21,730 bases of DNA, taken from a virus. Position 1 is the first letter of the stretch, and each line of letters begins with the position of its first letter. The notes below the pieces were generated by a model. The model was not told where the DNA came from, searched no databases, and saw only the letters and a program-made list of their open reading frames with translations. Both the position numbers and the translations under genes were made by a program. Location: positions 1-21,730 of the IMG/VR virus record IMGVR_UViG_3300006810_000469, one strand, 5' to 3'. Shown piece after piece: positions 2,905 through 10,598 of the stretch.

Positions 2905-4757
2905 TGCCCGCAATTGTTACCGAAACCCCGCGACATTCGCTCACTGTTAATAGCTCAGATTATCAGCTGACGCTGAATGGCGGCCCAATTACGCTTCCGG
3001 CCAGCACTTATGGCTACCTGAACCCGATTGCCTTTGGCGCTGACCCAACTGGTGCTACGGATTCCGCGCCCGCCATCCAGTCTGCTATTACGGCGGCCAT
3101 TGCGCGTGGTACCGGCGTCGAAATCACGTCCGGAACTTACCTGCTGGAGACCTACGCGGTCAGCACGATCCACCTAACCCTTTTCGAAACCAACTCGATT
3201 TCAGCCAATTCCCGCTGTGATGTCGTTGGCAACGGACGGGTGATTCTTACAACCGCTCAAGCTGGTTCGACCATCCTCCGCCTACAGGGCAGCAGCCGTA
3301 ATGCCCAGATTCGCAATATTCACTTTCGGAACACAGCGGTTGGCACAACCAGCCTTTCATACGGCATCAACTCAATTAGCGGAGGCACAGGCATCATTAA
3401 CCCACTCATTGCGGATAACCTGTTTGAAGGATTCGCCGTTTCAGTTGGCCTGTCTGGCGTAGAGGGTGCCCGCATCACCCGTAACCGGTTCCTTGCGCCG
3501 AATGGGCGCGACAGCGGAACTGCAACAAACACCGCACCAAACGTTTTCATCCGGTGTGACTCAAGCGTTAGTGGCGGTGCGGTAAAAAACACCATCGTCA
3601 CTGATAACTTTTTCGATGGCTATTCTGGCACAAACGGGATCGCGACCGACGCACCCCTTACACGGGCCACAATGGATGGTTCGATTTGGGGTGACACAAA
3701 CGGCCTGATCTTCACGAATAACACAATTCAGAATTTTGGTTTCGAAGGCATTCAATGCACCCGCGAGTTTGACGACGGCAGCTCTGAAAATCCGATTATT
3801 ATTTCCGATAATTCGATTAACTGCGCAGTTCCGATTGGTGCTTATAATTTCCCGACAACTGAGCCAGCTGGCCGTTCTTCGATGTGGCCAATCTGGTGTG
3901 CTTCGAGTTACGCCATTATTTCTGGAAACAATATTCAGGAAGCCGTCTCACCCCTCACTGTTGTTAACCCGCCATCGTCGGCAAACAGTCGGTCAACACT
4001 GGTGACGGGCAACATTATTAATACGTCTTCGACTATTGAGCCCAGCCGGTGTATTGACGTCTTTACAGTTCCACCTGACCAGACTTCCAATGTTGCTATT
4101 CGCAACAACCACATCTACTACAACTATGAAAGTGAGCACACCGAATCAGAATACCTAATTGGTGTCATCCGGTGTGACGATTCACTGGTTGAAGGAAACA
4201 CGATACACTTTACGGGGTTCACGACGGATTCAGGTGCGGAGTATGTGAAGTCAATTTTCCGCATGTTCAACTGCGACAACGTCAACATTTTTAATAACCA
4301 CGCCAACGACGGGGACTCTTTTTTGGATGACAACGACGGAACTGAAACCAGAATTAAGCTTTACGGCAACACCTTCAAACGGTCGGTTAACGTCTTTAGT
4401 GGGAACACGCCAGAAGGATATTCGTTCGTAACAGGTGAACAGAACGGGGAACACGTTATTGACGTAACAGGCGGTGTTGTTACGCCGGACGCTGGCAACG
4501 GCTTGAGGCAACGGATGGTTATCACCGAAAACATCACTAGTTTTAACGAGCCGACCAACCTTGATGACGGGCAAGAGCTTATTGTGCTGGTCCAACAGGG
4601 CGACCCCGCACGCTCTTTCGTTTTCAATGCTAACTTCGCGTTGCTATGTGTGACCAACTCATCTATTTCGAACATCCCAGCAGGTGGCTATGGTCAAATT
4701 CGTATTACCCGCTTCGATTCAAAGTATCTCGTAAACGTAATCTCATCCGTTCAGTGA
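2904..4757 (+). CDS. Tail spike with right-handed beta-helix (pectate-lyase-3-like)
   Basis: A 617-residue predicted tail spike. After a short attachment region of about 35 residues comes YLNPIAFGADPTGATDSAPA, the classic entry to the Pectate_lyase_3 (PF12708) beta-helix. From about residue 75 to 480 there are regularly spaced short strands and asparagine turns (for example ITRNRF, IVTDNFF, IFTNNTI, IISDNSI, VAIRNNHIYYN, VEGNTIHF, VNIFNNH), as expected of parallel beta-helix rungs. A C-terminal domain of about 100 residues follows and could serve in trimerisation. Such spikes bind and often cleave surface polysaccharide; I cannot assign catalytic residues, so binding without cleavage is possible. 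It overlaps the upstream adaptor (TAATG) and the downstream gene (GTGA). Confidence 0.85.
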   Translation: MPAIVTETPRHSLTVNSSDYQLTLNGGPITLPASTYGYLNPIAFGADPTGATDSAPAIQSAITAAIARGTGVEITSGTYLLETYAVSTIHLTLFETNSISANSRCDVVGNGRVILTTAQAGSTILRLQGSSRNAQIRNIHFRNTAVGTTSLSYGINSISGGTGIINPLIADNLFEGFAVSVGLSGVEGARITRNRFLAPNGRDSGTATNTAPNVFIRCDSSVSGGAVKNTIVTDNFFDGYSGTNGIATDAPLTRATMDGSIWGDTNGLIFTNNTIQNFGFEGIQCTREFDDGSSENPIIISDNSINCAVPIGAYNFPTTEPAGRSSMWPIWCASSYAIISGNNIQEAVSPLTVVNPPSSANSRSTLVTGNIINTSSTIEPSRCIDVFTVPPDQTSNVAIRNNHIYYNYESEHTESEYLIGVIRCDDSLVEGNTIHFTGFTTDSGAEYVKSIFRMFNCDNVNIFNNHANDGDSFLDDNDGTETRIKLYGNTFKRSVNVFSGNTPEGYSFVTGEQNGEHVIDVTGGVVTPDAGNGLRQRMVITENITSFNEPTNLDDGQELIVLVQQGDPARSFVFNANFALLCVTNSSISNIPAGGYGQIRITRFDSKYLVNVISSVQ

Positions 4758-5977
4758 ACCCAACCCGCCAGAGACAGAGAGTCATTTCGTTCCCGACACC
4801 GAACGTCAATGACTACTTGTTTTTTGAAACTGTCGATGCGCAGCGTATCGGTTCGGAGAAGACTGCTATTCCGGAGTATGGTTCGAAGCATCCGGATACC
4901 ATTAAGTGGCCAAACCACCGTCTTGTCCATGTTGAGCCTGCGGACGAAGAGCTTAACTTCTATAAATATTATTACGCTGCGGATCAACTTGATCAGGACG
5001 AAGATAACTGGGCATTCACCAAAGCGGATATTGGGGGCACAAAGTTTGATGCGGTAACACGAGATTATGTTATTCGACGAACAGAGTTTGACGCAGATAC
5101 ACCGGCAATGGCCGCGACCATGCCCAACACTCCTTCTGATAAGTTTTCCGGAACATACGTGCTAGCCGAACGGGAGCAACGACCAATTGATAACAAGGTG
5201 CTGAATGGCCTTTACGTCATCGAGCGCAGAACATATGTAAAAAAAGTTCCGCTTACCCGTTTGGATTTCGACGAGTTCTTTAACACCAGCAATTATACGA
5301 CTCAGACTCTCTTGCACAAAGACGAGTTCGGGCCAGATACTTCGACGTCAATTGAAGATCTTGTTGCAAATGCTGGGGGCGCTTTCGATTCCTACTGGGA
5401 AGTCAGCGCCTATGGTGTGCTGCGAACAGCAGAGCAGCTGTCGGACCAGTGGTATGTTCTAAACGAACGTGAAGTTGTTAACACCGGCGGAACAGGCACT
5501 ACGACAATCACGCTAAACCAGTCAATGAACTACCGCTGGCCACCAGTCCTTGACGACGTCGTCTTTGATACGTGGAACTTGCGGAGTGGGGGCACCCGCA
5601 CTTACCCACGCGTAACTTACACCAGAGGGCCTTACTCCGGCCCGTGTTCCGCAACAGTCGCCCGCACGTGGACGAAAGCGAAGCCCGCATCTGCTGGTGA
5701 CGCCGACCCAACGATGCAGCCAGAGCCAATTTCTTTTTCGACGCCTTACTTTCGGGTGAGTGTTCCGCCGACACTTCATGTCGCCCGAAACTTTGTTGGC
5801 ACGAATGGAACAGAAGATGAAACTTTTGAGTACACAAACTGGGCTTACAATAAAGACGCGACTAACTACACTGACTGGCCTTCTAGTCTCGTTGTATCGT
5901 CATCAGTACGTCCCTTCAGAGGGGGCTGGCTGCTTGAGGAAGTGACTGTCTTTAAACCCGAAACGACCGTTGTATAA
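4754..5977 (+). CDS. Putative virion structural protein (407 aa, GTG start)
   Basis: I do not recognise a named family. The protein is 407 residues, rich in aromatic and acidic residues and in predicted beta strands, with repeated motifs such as YVIRRTEFDADTP and YVIERRTYVKKVPL, and no membrane segment. It probably belongs to the tail or baseplate because it sits between the tail spike and another probable structural gene. The frame is open from 4646, but that would overlap the spike gene by 112 bases. A GTG at 4754 overlaps the spike TGA (GTGA), the same coupling used elsewhere here, so I start it there. Confidence 0.75.
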   Translation: MNPTRQRQRVISFPTPNVNDYLFFETVDAQRIGSEKTAIPEYGSKHPDTIKWPNHRLVHVEPADEELNFYKYYYAADQLDQDEDNWAFTKADIGGTKFDAVTRDYVIRRTEFDADTPAMAATMPNTPSDKFSGTYVLAEREQRPIDNKVLNGLYVIERRTYVKKVPLTRLDFDEFFNTSNYTTQTLLHKDEFGPDTSTSIEDLVANAGGAFDSYWEVSAYGVLRTAEQLSDQWYVLNEREVVNTGGTGTTTITLNQSMNYRWPPVLDDVVFDTWNLRSGGTRTYPRVTYTRGPYSGPCSATVARTWTKAKPASAGDADPTMQPEPISFSTPYFRVSVPPTLHVARNFVGTNGTEDETFEYTNWAYNKDATNYTDWPSSLVVSSSVRPFRGGWLLEEVTVFKPETTVV

Positions 5978-5978
5978 A

Positions 5979-6995
5979 GTGGAAGACGAATTGAATCTCG
6001 ACCAATATTCCAACATTGATACGGAGTGGAAAGCGGACCAGCCAGAAGTCGAAGTCTTCGAAGATGATCCAGCTTACAAGCCTTTTCCTTTTGCGTTGAG
6101 GCCAGCGCCAGACGAGCAGATTCACATCTACTTTGGTGTGCTGGTGCACCAAATCAACAAGATGTATTTCAGTTCAGATGGTCTTGTTTCACAGACTGGT
6201 CTACTCGATCCAGAAATCTTTGTCCCCTCTAATTTCGTTGTCGATGAGAACCGCTATCGGTTTTACACGCTGAACTGGCGCGGCGACGTTTACCTGTATT
6301 GGGAAACCGACTCCGAAGGCAATGTGACCCTCTGCGACGTAAGGGGGCCTGCTGCGCCCCCATCCCGCTCACTACCAAATGATTTGGGTGGCCAGTTCAG
6401 CGTTCGCTTAGGCACTGTCGCTTCTGGCGCGGCTGGTTACGAGATTGATTCGCTGGACCAAAACATCTCAACGGACGTCTATTGGCTTTCGGCATTCGGG
6501 GAACAGTTGGATGATACAGGTTCTGACTCCAGTTCTGACTCCAGTTCTGCCTCCAGTTCCGACTCTGAATCCGATTCGGGCTCGGATAAATCGACCGCTA
6601 TTGTACCAATGCCGTGGCATAAAAAAGGTTACGGTGCTTTGTTCACGATGGAATCCAATGAAGTTCTCTTTGAGTTCGTCATGCGTGACATCGAAATCAC
6701 GGATTCCGTTCAGTATGTCCCGATTAGTAAAAGGCACCTATATGTTTGCGCTCCAGACACAATTTGCGTCGCGGGCGCACCGTGCGGCGATAAAGGTCTT
6801 GCCGTAGGAGCGGAGGTATCAGGCAGCTTTATCATCTTGCGGACCAGCAAAATCCCGTTCTTGCGTCCAAACAAAGTTACTCTTAAACTTACTGGAGTTC
6901 GTAAAGGCTTCAACGGAATGGATATGCCGGAGCGTAGCCGGACTCAGTTCGAAGCCAACGAGCGGTTCATTAACTCAGCCTACCCTAAAGAATAA
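5979..6995 (+). CDS. Putative virion structural protein with Ser/Asp-rich linker
   Basis: A 338-residue protein of unknown family. Two parts are joined by a low-complexity Ser/Asp linker at about residues 181-204, encoded by a 12-bp tandem repeat. The N-terminal part is acidic and rich in Tyr/Phe; the C-terminal part holds VCAPDTICVAGAPCG with three cysteines and a beta-rich tail. Two starts are possible: a TTG at 5970, inside the previous gene, and a GTG at 5979, one base after its TAA. I chose the GTG, without certainty. The protein is probably structural because of its position after spike and tail genes. The linker would be flexible and is a plausible acceptor for the sugar-modifying enzymes encoded just downstream. 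Confidence 0.7.
   Translation: MEDELNLDQYSNIDTEWKADQPEVEVFEDDPAYKPFPFALRPAPDEQIHIYFGVLVHQINKMYFSSDGLVSQTGLLDPEIFVPSNFVVDENRYRFYTLNWRGDVYLYWETDSEGNVTLCDVRGPAAPPSRSLPNDLGGQFSVRLGTVASGAAGYEIDSLDQNISTDVYWLSAFGEQLDDTGSDSSSDSSSASSSDSESDSGSDKSTAIVPMPWHKKGYGALFTMESNEVLFEFVMRDIEITDSVQYVPISKRHLYVCAPDTICVAGAPCGDKGLAVGAEVSGSFIILRTSKIPFLRPNKVTLKLTGVRKGFNGMDMPERSRTQFEANERFINSAYPKE
6521..6562 (+). repeat. 12-bp tandem repeat coding for a Ser/Asp linker
   Basis: TTCTGACTCCAG occurs at 6521-6532 and 6533-6544, then with one change (TTCTGCCTCCAG) at 6545-6556, and decays into related TCC/GAC codons up to about 6588. It encodes repeats of Ser-Asp-Ser-Ser. The unit is a multiple of three, so copy-number change would lengthen or shorten the linker without breaking the frame. 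Confidence 0.85.
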
Positions 6996-7087
6996 TGTCA
7001 GAATCAGAATCAGAAGGATCAGCAAAGACGTCTTCGTCTGTCTCAGAGTCGATGTCCAGCGAAAGTTCAAGTTCAAGCGGATCGTGA
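6995..7087 (+). CDS. 30-residue serine-rich peptide gene
   Basis: An ATG at 6995 shares an A with the preceding TAA (TAATG), and the reading frame runs to a TGA at 7085-7087, which overlaps the GTG start of the next gene (GTGA). The product has 30 residues, 17 of them serine, with five glutamates, one threonine and one lysine; it begins MSESESEGSAKTSSS and ends in a five-serine run followed by GS. There is no hydrophobic segment. The stop and start overlaps on both sides argue that it is translated, though a short low-complexity frame can arise by chance. It lies directly before glycosyltransferase genes, so it may be a hydroxyl-rich acceptor, or simply a spacer that keeps ribosomes moving. 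Function unknown. Confidence 0.55.
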   Translation: MSESESEGSAKTSSSVSESMSSESSSSSGS

Positions 7088-7758
7088 AGAACTTAACCGA
7101 CTGGTTCGACCGCGTCTACGTGATTAACTGCCAGACACGACCCGACCGGCTACAGGAAACGAAAGACCACCTGTCCGAAACTAAAATGGCGGACATCGGA
7201 AAGGTCGTTTTTTACCCAGCTATTATCGGAAGCTGGACCACTGTTCCAGCTGACTGGCTTTCCGGTGAAGGCGCATGGGGTTGCCGAAACACGCACGCCC
7301 GCATTCTTGAAGACGTCATTCACACACGCAACGACGAAGGCGAGATGACCCTTAAAAATATTTTGATTCTTGAAGATGATGTTGTTTTCGTGGATAAAGC
7401 GCTGCAAAAGTTTAATGAGTTCATCGTGAACGTGCCCGTCGATTGGGGCCAAATCTATTTAGGCGGTCAGCACAGGGGCCGCAAACTTGAAACGGAACAT
7501 GACAACGTAATTGACGCAACCTCCATAAACCGCACACACGCCCATGCGATTAATAAACCGTATTATCAGCAAGTTTACCGGCATATCACTTATGCGTCGG
7601 ACTACAGGGGCAAGAAAAACCACCACGTTGACCACCAGCTTGAAGTCGCCCATCGGCGCGGAGACTGGCCCGTCTACTGCCCGAAAAAATGGTTGGTCGG
7701 ACAGCGTGCTGGAAAATCCGACATTAGCGGGAAAACAAACCCAACAAAATTTTGGTGA
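7084..7758 (+). CDS. Glycosyltransferase family 25-like protein (1)
   Basis: A 224-residue predicted glycosyltransferase of the GT25 (LPS/LOS biosynthesis) type. The N-terminal VYVINCQTRPDR (residues 11-22) matches the family's opening strand and Arg motif; GAWGCRNTHARILEDV (63-78) is the conserved GC-x3-H helix region; ILILEDDVVF (93-102) carries the acidic EDD motif expected to bind metal and sugar nucleotide. It would act in the host cytoplasm on a virion protein or a host glycan. The GTG start at 7084 overlaps the TGA of the serine-rich peptide. It is first of three transferases; the second shares the same motif layout and is probably an ancient duplicate. Donor and acceptor cannot be read from the sequence. 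Confidence 0.8.
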   Translation: MKNLTDWFDRVYVINCQTRPDRLQETKDHLSETKMADIGKVVFYPAIIGSWTTVPADWLSGEGAWGCRNTHARILEDVIHTRNDEGEMTLKNILILEDDVVFVDKALQKFNEFIVNVPVDWGQIYLGGQHRGRKLETEHDNVIDATSINRTHAHAINKPYYQQVYRHITYASDYRGKKNHHVDHQLEVAHRRGDWPVYCPKKWLVGQRAGKSDISGKTNPTKFW

Positions 7759-8402
7759 TGGCTGTTATTGACTTAGACGCAATACGAATTATCTCTTTGG
7801 AAGAGCGGACAGACAGGCGGGAGCAGTCTACCTCTGAGTTTCAAAAAGCTGTTGACGCCGGTATTTTTCCAGATATCAAACCAGAATTTGTTAACCGCCT
7901 TAAACCTGCTGGCTCTTTGTGGCCCGCAAGTTTTTCTGGTCACAGAGGCTATTATCAGGCGACATGCGAACACATCCGGATTCTCGAAGAGCTGTTCCAG
8001 AACAAAAAGGATCTTGCGCTTATTCTGGAAGACGACTTCGTGTTCACGAAGAGCTTCTTCGACCACTTCGAAACTTTTTGGCAGGAGATCCAAACGGACG
8101 CGCCAGACTGGCTTGCTTTATTCTTAGGTGGCACAGATCAAAACGGTCGGTCACCTATTAAGGGCACAACACAAGTCGCGCTTAATAAAGGATCTACCCG
8201 CAGCCACGCTTACATCGTGAACAGGGCAGGGATGTGGCGGTTGTATGACCATCTTTTCTGCGATAGGCGGGTAGTCGATTGGTCTTATGTGAACATGATG
8301 TCTTCGGACGCTTGCTGCTACTCACCATCTAAAGAGTGGTATGTGGAGACCAGAGAATCGTGGAGCAATAACAGGCAGTGCATCGCCAAATACGGATCAT
8401 GA
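7758..8402 (+). CDS. Glycosyltransferase family 25-like protein (2)
   Basis: A 214-residue predicted transferase with the same architecture as its upstream neighbour: IRIISLEERTDRR (9-21), GHRGYYQATCEHIRILEE (61-78, with YYQATCEHI where the first copy has GCRNTHARI) and ALILEDDFVF (87-96). LFLGG at 121-125 matches IYLGG of the first copy. Conservation of the acidic motif argues that both are active, although this copy lacks the GC before the helix. The ATG at 7758 shares a base with the previous TGA (TGATG); in-frame TTG (7752) and GTG (7755) codons just upstream are less likely starts. The two may act in sequence on one glycan. Confidence 0.75.
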   Translation: MAVIDLDAIRIISLEERTDRREQSTSEFQKAVDAGIFPDIKPEFVNRLKPAGSLWPASFSGHRGYYQATCEHIRILEELFQNKKDLALILEDDFVFTKSFFDHFETFWQEIQTDAPDWLALFLGGTDQNGRSPIKGTTQVALNKGSTRSHAYIVNRAGMWRLYDHLFCDRRVVDWSYVNMMSSDACCYSPSKEWYVETRESWSNNRQCIAKYGS

Positions 8403-9016
8403 ATATAGGACTCAGCTACAGCCTTTTCGGTGAAAATGAAAAATACTGGACTGGAATCGAGAAAAACTACCGGAAGATAAATAGTATCTATCCGGAGGCC
8501 ACGATGATTGTGCATACAGACGACCCGAAACGGGTGGCACAATTGTGCCCCAAAGCGGCTATCTTTGCACACCAGACGCCAGCTGACTTGGGGGGAACTT
8601 TCTGGCGCTTTCTATCCTACAACTGCGCGGACGCTGTCCTGTTTCGCGATGCCGATAGCTTAATCAACGTTCGAGAACGAGCTGCGGTAGATGAGTGGCT
8701 GGAATCGGGCTTAGGCTTACACGCCATGCTGGACCACGCTTCGCACACTAAATCTGAATGGCCTGTTCTGGCGGGTATGTGGGGGGCACGCAAAGACAGC
8801 ATTCCGTTTGACTTCAACCACCTAACCTTCTGGTGGCTGGCCAACAAGGGGAGCTTCAAATACACCTCTGACCAATGGTATCTTCGACGATACATTTGGC
8901 CACTTATAGTGAGTGGTGATGGCCTACTCCACAGCCGCTATCCGGCGCACAAATGGGGTGGGCTTGACTGGCCAAAACATCCCGAATATAACTCTTTTGT
9001 AGGATCAAGAATATGA
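8399..9016 (+). CDS. Putative glycosyltransferase with DxD motif
   Basis: A 205-residue protein opening with NIGLSYSLFG and an alpha/beta pattern like a GT-A nucleotide-sugar transferase. FRDADS at 82-87 supplies a DxD (D84, D86) after a hydrophobic strand, the usual place for metal and sugar-diphosphate binding; ATMIVHTDDP (35-43) resembles another Rossmann strand. It differs from the two GT25-like genes and probably belongs to another GT-A family, which I do not name. The ATG at 8399 overlaps the previous TGA (ATGA); a start at 8378 would extend into the previous gene. Operon position between transferases and a methyltransferase supports a role in the same modification. Confidence 0.65.
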   Translation: MNIGLSYSLFGENEKYWTGIEKNYRKINSIYPEATMIVHTDDPKRVAQLCPKAAIFAHQTPADLGGTFWRFLSYNCADAVLFRDADSLINVRERAAVDEWLESGLGLHAMLDHASHTKSEWPVLAGMWGARKDSIPFDFNHLTFWWLANKGSFKYTSDQWYLRRYIWPLIVSGDGLLHSRYPAHKWGGLDWPKHPEYNSFVGSRI

Positions 9017-9645
9017 AAGAGAACGAAGAAGTATTTGAAGACATTTATGTAAACCGTAAGTGGGGGTTTGGGCCGCGTTCTGGCGGTGGGTCCTCTCTTA
9101 ACCAGACTCGTGTTTTGGCAGAGCGCTTGCCAGAGTTGGTTTACAGTTTGGATCTTGAGAAGATTTTAGACTGCGGTTGCGGAGATTGGACATGGATGAA
9201 GAACGTCGATCTAAAAGGCGCAAAATACACCGGTCTCGACGTTTCGCCTTCAGCCATCGCGGACCTGCAGGCGAAGTTTCCAGACCGGAAATTCAAAGTG
9301 GCTGATATCTGCCGCGACAAACTTCCGAAAGCGGACCTCGCTCTCTGCCGCGATGTGCTGGTTCACTTGCCGTTTGACAATATTTGGGACTTCATTTCCA
9401 ATCTAAAAAGTAGTAAAATACGATATTTAGCCACAACCGCTTTCCCTTCCCGAACCCTGAACCGCGATTGTGAAACCGGAGACTGGCGGCCAATTAACTA
9501 CGAGATCGCCCCATTTAACTTCCCACTGCCTTTTTTGACCATCAACGAGCGTCTGGAAGCGCACGGCGGGCATTATCGGGACAAGTCCACCTGCATCTGG
9601 CACGTGGATAGCCTGCCTAGCCGACCATTGACTTTTGAGACGTAA
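9013..9645 (+). CDS. Class I SAM-dependent methyltransferase
   Basis: A 210-residue predicted methyltransferase with a full Rossmann-type SAM site: ILDCGCGDW (51-59, motif I), YTGLDVSPSAI (72-82, acidic end of strand 2), FKVADIC (94-100) and ALCRDVLVHLP (110-120, motif IV and helix). The layout resembles small-molecule or glycan methyltransferases (Methyltransf_11/25 type) rather than DNA methylases: no DPPY/NPPF or PC motif is seen. It overlaps the last transferase (ATGA) and ends the cassette, so O-methylation of the sugar added by the upstream enzymes is the simplest proposal. Methyl capping of glycans is known in other systems; here it is inferred from position only. Confidence 0.8.
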   Translation: MKENEEVFEDIYVNRKWGFGPRSGGGSSLNQTRVLAERLPELVYSLDLEKILDCGCGDWTWMKNVDLKGAKYTGLDVSPSAIADLQAKFPDRKFKVADICRDKLPKADLALCRDVLVHLPFDNIWDFISNLKSSKIRYLATTAFPSRTLNRDCETGDWRPINYEIAPFNFPLPFLTINERLEAHGGHYRDKSTCIWHVDSLPSRPLTFET

Positions 9646-9662: not shown

Positions 9663-10598
9663 ATGCCCGCTATTAGTGTAAAGTCTATTCGCAGATATCT
9701 TGCGGACTACGTGAGGCCGGACGAGGATTTAGTAACGAAGCTGAATTTTGTAATGCCACGGCTCTACTCAATGGGTATGTGGCGAGATTTGGTCTACGAG
9801 TGGACCATCACGACTAGCAATACGTATTTCTCGTTACCGGAGCATTCTGAGTCGCTGCTGGGCGCAATGGTTGACAACGCTCCTTCTGAGATCAAAGCAG
9901 TATGGCACGACTACAGGATTCAAGGCTACACCAACGAAGGGCCTTCGCCACTGTTCGGCGTTGTGGATGACGGCTGGTCAGTCATCAGAGAAGACCTCTT
10001 GACGGGCGATAGCGACGACTACGAGATCGAACTGCGACCCGTCTCTCCCGCCACGGCCTTACCGAATATAGGCGAAGTCTCGATCAGTTTCACGATTCGT
10101 GATGAATCCGACTTTGAAGAAGATTTCGAGATGGCTGGTCAATCCACCGCAACCAGCAGCCGTTCTACTGTAACGGAAATATCTGAAATCCAGTTTTCGG
10201 GCCTGAACGAAGCTATTGACGTTTATGCGATCCACCAGAACGGAGGAACAGACATCAAACTTGCCACCATCAAAGGTGACGGGATCACCCGTTACCGACG
10301 CTTTAGGCTCTACAACGCGGACGGCACAGTTAAGAGCGTGAAGACGCTTCTGAAGCGTGCGTGGCAGCCTGTGTTCAATGATGACGACGTGGTCTATTTG
10401 GGAAACTTGAACGCCATCAAGCATGGCCTGTTGGGCATGTTGGCTGAAGACAATGCGGACCTGCAACGCGCTGAATACCATTGGCGGGTGTGCGAAAAGC
10501 TTTTGAACGAAGAGATGGATGCCACCAGAGGCGCAGCAAAGCCTAAACTCCGATTGAAACCGGACGGCGGGTCTTTTGCGGTAACCAATATCATGTAG
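9663..10598 (+). CDS. Connector / tail-tubular-like virion structural protein
   Basis: A 311-residue predicted structural protein. Its final third, with KHGLLGMLAEDNADLQRAEY followed by HWRVCEKLLNEEMDAT and a Lys/Pro-rich end, is a pattern I associate with podophage tail tubular A or head-tail connector-like proteins: a helix with small residues, then a charged helix ending in KLRLKPDG. The N-terminus (ISVKSIRRYLADYVRPDEDLVTKLNF) is helical, and the middle is beta-rich. It would sit at the portal-tail junction. It begins 17 bases after the methyltransferase stop with no visible ribosome site, so the modification cassette appears inserted between structural genes. Assignment is by pattern memory. 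Confidence 0.55.
   Translation: MPAISVKSIRRYLADYVRPDEDLVTKLNFVMPRLYSMGMWRDLVYEWTITTSNTYFSLPEHSESLLGAMVDNAPSEIKAVWHDYRIQGYTNEGPSPLFGVVDDGWSVIREDLLTGDSDDYEIELRPVSPATALPNIGEVSISFTIRDESDFEEDFEMAGQSTATSSRSTVTEISEIQFSGLNEAIDVYAIHQNGGTDIKLATIKGDGITRYRRFRLYNADGTVKSVKTLLKRAWQPVFNDDDVVYLGNLNAIKHGLLGMLAEDNADLQRAEYHWRVCEKLLNEEMDATRGAAKPKLRLKPDGGSFAVTNIM

What the first reader, a model, noticed from the sequence alone, without database searches (positions are those of the whole stretch)
6995..9645. Serine-rich 30-residue peptide coupled to a transferase-methyltransferase cassette
The 30-codon frame at 6995-7087 shares bases with both neighbours (TAATG before, GTGA after) and encodes 17 serines in 30 residues. 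The next four genes, also overlapping, are two GT25-like enzymes, a DxD glycosyltransferase and a SAM methyltransferase. The overlaps and motifs are seen directly; the family assignments are established patterns. That the peptide is the glycosylated acceptor, or the primer for a methylated glycan on the virion, is inference. A tiny acceptor gene placed directly ahead of its modifying enzymes would be a compact and, as far as I know, undescribed arrangement.
Basis: partly seen in the sequence, partly recalled or inferred. Interest (0 to 1): 0.72.

Follow-up and report, generated by a model that had tools for sequence, protein, structure and literature searches.

The report
Smallest allele of phage serine-tail gene
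The 30-residue serine-rich peptide is a real but stripped-down version of a highly variable gene in a group of uncultured phages; all versions keep one short sequence tag and nearly all sit beside sugar-attaching enzymes, so the peptide is probably the bare, sugar-bearing anchor of a protein that other relatives carry with an extra domain.

Summary
Observation confirmed: 6995-7087 encodes MSESESEGSAKTSSSVSESMSSESSSSSGS (17 Ser of 30), TAATG overlap in, GTGA overlap out, then GT25a, GT25b, a DxD transferase-like gene and a methyltransferase, each overlapping the next. It is not an isolated tiny gene. In related phages the same slot, between the orthologue of 5970-6995 (g5970) and GT25a, holds genes of 62-886 codons. 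Bodies are interchangeable; the constant part is a serine-rich segment with the motif GS[AS]K[ST]xxSVSE[SG]. The window's 30-mer is that segment without a body; L006, L072 and L092 also lack a body. Motif codons change mostly synonymously (pS 0.88, pN 0.17). A scan of 2.9 million viral contigs with the degenerate motif hit 21 contigs, all in this slot. GT25a is constant; the genes after it differ between phages and are mostly glycan enzymes. Best reading: a phage protein-glycosylation locus with a hypervariable, probably virion-displayed, serine-rich acceptor, here in its minimal allele. Glycosylation itself is inferred. One clade (L077-L083) has GT25a without the slot gene, so the enzyme does not need the peptide. 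The 'dedicated tiny acceptor' idea is partly supported.

The parts
6995..7087 (+). 30-codon slot gene: body-less allele of the hypervariable serine-rich gene
7016..7051 (+). conserved motif GSAKTSSSVSES inside the peptide
   Evidence: degenerate motif scan of viral contigs
5970..6995 (+). g5970, conserved gene immediately upstream, stop overlaps the peptide start; TTG start uncertain; probable structural protein (inferred from position)
   Evidence: no family match
6519..6611 (+). serine-rich linker of g5970 ending in the invariant GSDKSTAIVPM, sharing GSxK[ST] with the slot motif
7084..7758 (+). GT25a, the constant GT25-like glycosyltransferase of the locus
7758..8402 (+). GT25b, second GT25-like enzyme, variable part of the cassette
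8399..9016 (+). DxD (RDADS) transferase-like gene, family not assigned
   Evidence: no match
9013..9645 (+). SAM-dependent methyltransferase
9663..10598 (+). next gene conserved in the relatives; right border of the variable cassette

Best explanation
The peptide is the shortest allele of a hypervariable slot gene. Shown: slot genes share a serine-rich segment with the tag GS[AS]K[ST]xxSVSE[SG], placed C-terminally, internally or N-terminally, while the rest of the protein is swapped or, as here, absent. Shown: the slot lies between a conserved gene and GT25a, usually with overlapping or abutting stops and starts; GT25a is constant and the genes after it are exchanged between phages for other, mostly glycan, enzymes. 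Inferred: the slot protein is a virion decoration; its serine-rich segment, and perhaps the matching linker of g5970, is O-glycosylated, GT25a adding the first sugar and the variable enzymes extending it and, in the window, methylating it. In the window only the tagged acceptor or anchor remains. Likelihoods: body-less allele of the slot gene about 0.95; protein-glycosylation locus about 0.6; serines of this segment as the acceptor about 0.45. The confidence below is for the whole chain.
For: Slot and motif in 29 slot genes, 23 of them matching the strict motif. Protein-level constraint, pooled pS 0.88 against pN 0.17 over 18 comparisons, with conserved serines written in both TCN and AGY codons. 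Degenerate motif scan of 2.9 million viral contigs: 21 contigs, all this slot, 20 with GT25a following and one ending before it. The search by g5970 alone leads to the same slot and a GT25 wherever the contig is long enough. Four body-less alleles in different lineages stay open. GT25a keeps an invariant EDD and its confident model (pLDDT 88.8) is closest to mimivirus R655 and human COLGALT1. Variable downstream genes include GT8, GT25 and GT32-type enzymes, UDP-galactopyranose mutase, methyltransferases and an acyltransferase-like protein. Literature: mycobacteriophages glycosylate capsid and tail-tube proteins, reported at their C-termini (PMC12619734, PMC12363180).
Against: No direct evidence of glycosylation or of virion location. 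L077-L083 have GT25a with neither slot gene nor motif. The 30-codon allele is seen in one lineage only (window and L002, identical there). GT25 enzymes also act on LPS and other glycans. Several cassette genes match no family, and L014 has no extra enzyme between GT25a and the next conserved gene.
Confidence: 0.45

Rival explanations
1. The motif is a docking or assembly tag, not a glycosylation site: it fixes the slot protein to a virion partner, perhaps the one that holds the GSDKS segment of g5970; the serine runs are flexible spacers; the neighbouring glycan enzymes modify the host surface or another protein.
For: The least variable residues are Gly, Lys, Val and Glu and not only Ser; g5970 has an invariant GSDKSTAIVPM; GT25a exists without the motif in L077-L083; the motif moves between termini like a portable tag.
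Against: Does not explain why a serine-rich segment and GT25a stay neighbours across distant members, nor the exchange of glycan enzymes at this place.
Confidence: 0.3
2. The frame is only a translational bridge: ribosomes ending g5970 restart on it and are carried to the GT25a start; the peptide itself does nothing.
For: Overlaps on both sides; overlapping or abutting starts are common in relatives; no promoter or terminator found between the genes.
Against: A bridge needs no particular sequence, yet the motif is held at protein level; L077-L083 do without a bridge; most alleles are long proteins.
Confidence: 0.12
3. The window allele is a decaying remnant: a deletion removed the body and the remaining frame is not yet lost.
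For: Only one lineage carries the 30-codon form; it is the shortest of all alleles.
Against: The motif is intact and differs from relatives mainly at synonymous sites; three other lineages keep body-less alleles open; both overlaps are intact.
Confidence: 0.1
4. The frame is a C-terminal extension of g5970 made by -1 frameshifting.
For: The frame is -1 relative to g5970 and resembles a C-terminal tail.
Against: By inspection no slippery heptamer at the junction, and a stop in the -1 frame three codons before the ATG (LP*RIM); relatives start the slot at an own ATG at several spacings (TAATG, TAAATG, TAAAATG, ATGA); no stable RNA structure (z +0.70).
Confidence: 0.03

Closest known systems
Mycobacteriophage virion glycosylation (Che8, Corndog, Myrna; Freeman et al. 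2023 as cited in PMC12363180, PMC12619734, PMC11256854)
   Same: Phage-encoded glycosyltransferases; glycans reported at C-termini of capsid and tail-tube proteins, comparable to the C-terminal serine segment in close relatives of the window.
   Different: There the modification is measured and the acceptors are capsid and tail-tube proteins; here it is inferred, and the candidate acceptor is a hypervariable serine-rich gene with a short constant motif directly ahead of the enzyme.
Serine-rich repeat proteins with their glycosyltransferase clusters (Gram-positive aSec/SecA2-SecY2 loci; review PMC6973325)
   Same: Serine-rich acceptor gene co-located with a constant initiating enzyme and a variable number of further glycosyltransferases; variable binding domains on a serine-rich stalk.
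   Different: No accessory secretion genes were recognised; initiating enzymes there are GtfA/GtfB, not GT25; here it is a phage locus and the serine segment can stand alone.
GT25 glycosyltransferases (COLGALT1, mimivirus R655, LPS beta-1,4-galactosyltransferases)
   Same: Sequence and predicted fold of GT25a.
   Different: Donor and acceptor of GT25a unknown; collagen hydroxylysine chemistry is not implied.
Swappable Ig-like and other display domains of phage virion proteins (from own knowledge)
   Same: Exchangeable domains, including Ig-like repeats (L041), at one genomic position.
   Different: The constant element here is a short serine-rich tag, and body-less alleles exist.

Membership tests
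Slot-gene family defined in this work | position between g5970 and GT25a, serine-rich segment, motif GS[AS]K[ST]xxSVSE | tested here: met
   window frame meets all three
Glycosyltransferase family 25 (PF01755), for GT25a | profile match at the curated cut-off | tested here: not met
   21.2 bits against a cut-off of 24; GT25b 23.7 bits. Hence called GT25-like by profile alone
Glycosyltransferase family 25 (PF01755), for GT25a | GT25 fold and acidic metal-binding motif | tested here: met
   invariant EDD; profile finds COLGALT1 and R655; predicted fold closest to the same proteins
Phage virion glycosylation system | phage-encoded glycosyltransferase beside structural genes | tested here: inconclusive
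   glycosyltransferases present; structural role of g5970 and its neighbours is inferred, no family match
Phage virion glycosylation system | glycans measured on virion proteins | not testable with these tools
   needs mass spectrometry
Serine-rich repeat glycoprotein (aSec) locus | SecA2/SecY2 accessory secretion genes | not tested
   no dedicated search; none recognised among the window genes scanned
Serine-rich repeat glycoprotein (aSec) locus | serine-rich acceptor beside a variable set of glycosyltransferases | tested here: met
   that it is an acceptor is inferred

The most novel reading that the evidence does not exclude
A phage-specific short linear code (GSxK[ST] beside serine runs), carried by two neighbouring proteins, marks them for a dedicated GT25-like initiating enzyme; the phages exchange both the displayed domain and the glycan-finishing enzymes around this constant code, and in the window the code is expressed as a free 30-residue glycopeptide or primer with no protein attached.
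Probability: 0.15. Interest if true: 0.8.

Novelty: new variant of a known kind. Interest (0 to 1): 0.5.

Why it matters
If the reading holds, a group of uncultured phages diversifies its particle surface in two linked ways: swapping the protein domain hung on a serine-rich tag and swapping the enzymes that build the sugar on it. That would extend virion glycosylation beyond mycobacteriophages, supply a short candidate acceptor that can be tested in a tube with one enzyme, and warn annotators that 30-codon frames in such slots can be real alleles of much longer genes.

Tried and rejected
Searches of isolated phage records: no DNA match, no relative of g5970, only two remote GT25 matches. Frameshift fusion to g5970: rejected. 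RNA element: rejected, fold no better than shuffles and codons vary synonymously. Structure of g5970: model too weak to search (mean pLDDT 54). Literature searches for phage serine-rich acceptors beside glycosyltransferases found none described, but the library lacks most subscription papers. Collagen-like hydroxylysine modification, suggested by the COLGALT1 similarity and the motif lysine, was considered and left as speculation: no hydroxylase was seen among the cassette genes scanned. The motif search favoured Gly, Lys and Val when placing the motif, so the full invariance of those residues is partly by construction; 23 of 29 match the strict pattern.

Full report
Observation. The frame at 6995-7087 reads MSESESEGSAKTSSSVSESMSSESSSSSGS, 17 serines in 30 residues. 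It shares an A with the stop of the upstream gene (TAATG) and its TGA overlaps the GTG of the next gene (GTGA); the four following genes overlap one another. The family names are right in outline: GT25a and GT25b are just under the PF01755 cut-off, the last gene is a clear methyltransferase, while the third enzyme has no family match and only a conserved RDADS motif.

What it is. The window is a 21.7-kb virus record without close relatives among isolated phages. GT25a found 22 related viral loci; g5970 and the GT25a profile found more. A genome scan found three contigs in Verrucomicrobiota assemblies (L091, L092, L097) with g5970, slot and GT25a in the same order. In these relatives the place of the peptide holds a gene of very different size: 62 aa (L092), 63 (L072), 84 (L006), 122-164 (ten loci), 183-276 (L097, L044, L088), 392-551 (L047, L015, L041, L045, L016, L018, L008) and 886 (L076). 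Bodies include tandem Ig-like repeats (L041: PF16403 E 9e-30), a propeller-like repeat body (L008, L016, L018; judged by eye only) and unassigned bodies. What recurs is a serine-rich segment with GS[AS]K[ST]xxSVSE[SG]. In close relatives it ends the protein next to or overlapping the GT25a start; in L015, L041 and L045 it is internal; in distant phages it begins the protein, as MSYGSAKSSGSVSES in L044. The window peptide is this segment alone.

Is the motif real. Shuffling the residues of the peptide reproduces the strict motif in 35 of 200,000 trials. Of 29 slot genes 23 match the strict pattern; L018, L019 and L087 deviate slightly, L076, L088 and L097 more. Across 18 comparisons with the window, pooled synonymous difference is 0.88 per site and nonsynonymous 0.17, and conserved serines are written with both TCN and AGY codons, so the protein and not the DNA is conserved. 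These comparisons are not independent and synonymous sites are near saturation, so the ratio is a guide and not a formal test. A degenerate DNA form of the motif was scanned against 2.9 million viral contigs: 21 contigs, one match each, all of them contigs already known to carry the slot, 20 with GT25a after it and one (L046) ending before it. A second pattern for the window's Thr form hit only the contigs of L002 and L072, and a third, for the N-terminal form, hit only that of L044. These scans remove the bias of having found loci through GT25a. The search by g5970 alone (25 contigs) also gave slot and GT25 wherever the contig ran far enough.

How it may work. GT25a is the constant enzyme: invariant EDD, confident model, nearest solved folds mimivirus R655 and human collagen galactosyltransferase. 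The genes between GT25a and the next conserved gene (9663-10598 in the window) are exchanged: GT8-type, a second GT25, GT32-type (Gly_transf_sug), UDP-galactopyranose mutase, Methyltransf_24 and FkbM-type methyltransferases, a protein with methyltransferase and GT29-like parts, a hexapeptide acyltransferase; L014 has none, and several genes match no family. A constant first enzyme plus variable finishing enzymes is the pattern expected for glycan diversification on a constant acceptor. The candidates for that acceptor are the slot segment and the g5970 linker, which share GSxK[ST] after serine- or glycine-rich stretches. That they receive sugar is inference. In mycobacteriophages, phage enzymes do glycosylate virion proteins, reported at C-termini (PMC12619734, PMC12363180). 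Serine-rich repeat proteins of Gram-positive bacteria are a further functional parallel: a constant initiating enzyme and a variable number of extra glycosyltransferases beside the acceptor gene (PMC6973325).

Limits. L077-L083 keep GT25a at 47-51% identity next to a g5970-like protein and have no slot gene or motif. So GT25a does not depend on the peptide, and g5970 may be the more basic substrate. The 30-codon allele is seen in one lineage only (window and L002, identical there), so constraint on this allele itself cannot be measured; the case rests on the conserved motif and on three other body-less alleles (L006, L072, L092). Virion location is inferred from neighbours, which have no family match.

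Verdict. Observation confirmed; interpretation partly supported. It is a new variant of a known kind: a probable phage glycosylation locus with a modular, hypervariable, serine-tagged candidate acceptor, of which the window carries the smallest allele.

Noticed in passing
L092 6909-8090: GT25a of this Opitutae-assembly contig is interrupted in frame, at its invariant Cys67, by about 394 residues with intein hallmarks (starts Cys, ends Ser-Asn before Cys; weak match to the Pfam intein splicing domain, E 0.001): probably an intein in a glycosyltransferase.
   Followed up: partly
L014 6229-8514: The homologue of window gene 4646-5977 is 761 aa against 443 and carries an insertion that looks trypsin-like by eye (NNDSGSP); Pfam found no match. 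Similar splits of the match are seen in L004, L008, L009, L011 and L016.
   Followed up: partly
L091, L092, L097: Related loci lie in Verrucomicrobiota genome assemblies (Verrucomicrobiales, Opitutae), hinting at the host; L091 has the same slot protein as viral contig L015.
   Followed up: no
window 6519-6611: g5970 has a serine-rich linker of variable length followed by an invariant GSDKSTAIVPM in all 13 aligned relatives, echoing the slot motif.
   Followed up: partly
L076 3190-5850: Slot gene of 886 aa, built largely of long GSNPGS-type repeats after an N-terminal SYGSAKSSGSS.
   Followed up: no
L089 6001-9018: A distant locus with GT25a (33%), a closer GT25b relative (43%) and a weak methyltransferase match in a row, in a 211-kb viral contig.
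   Followed up: no
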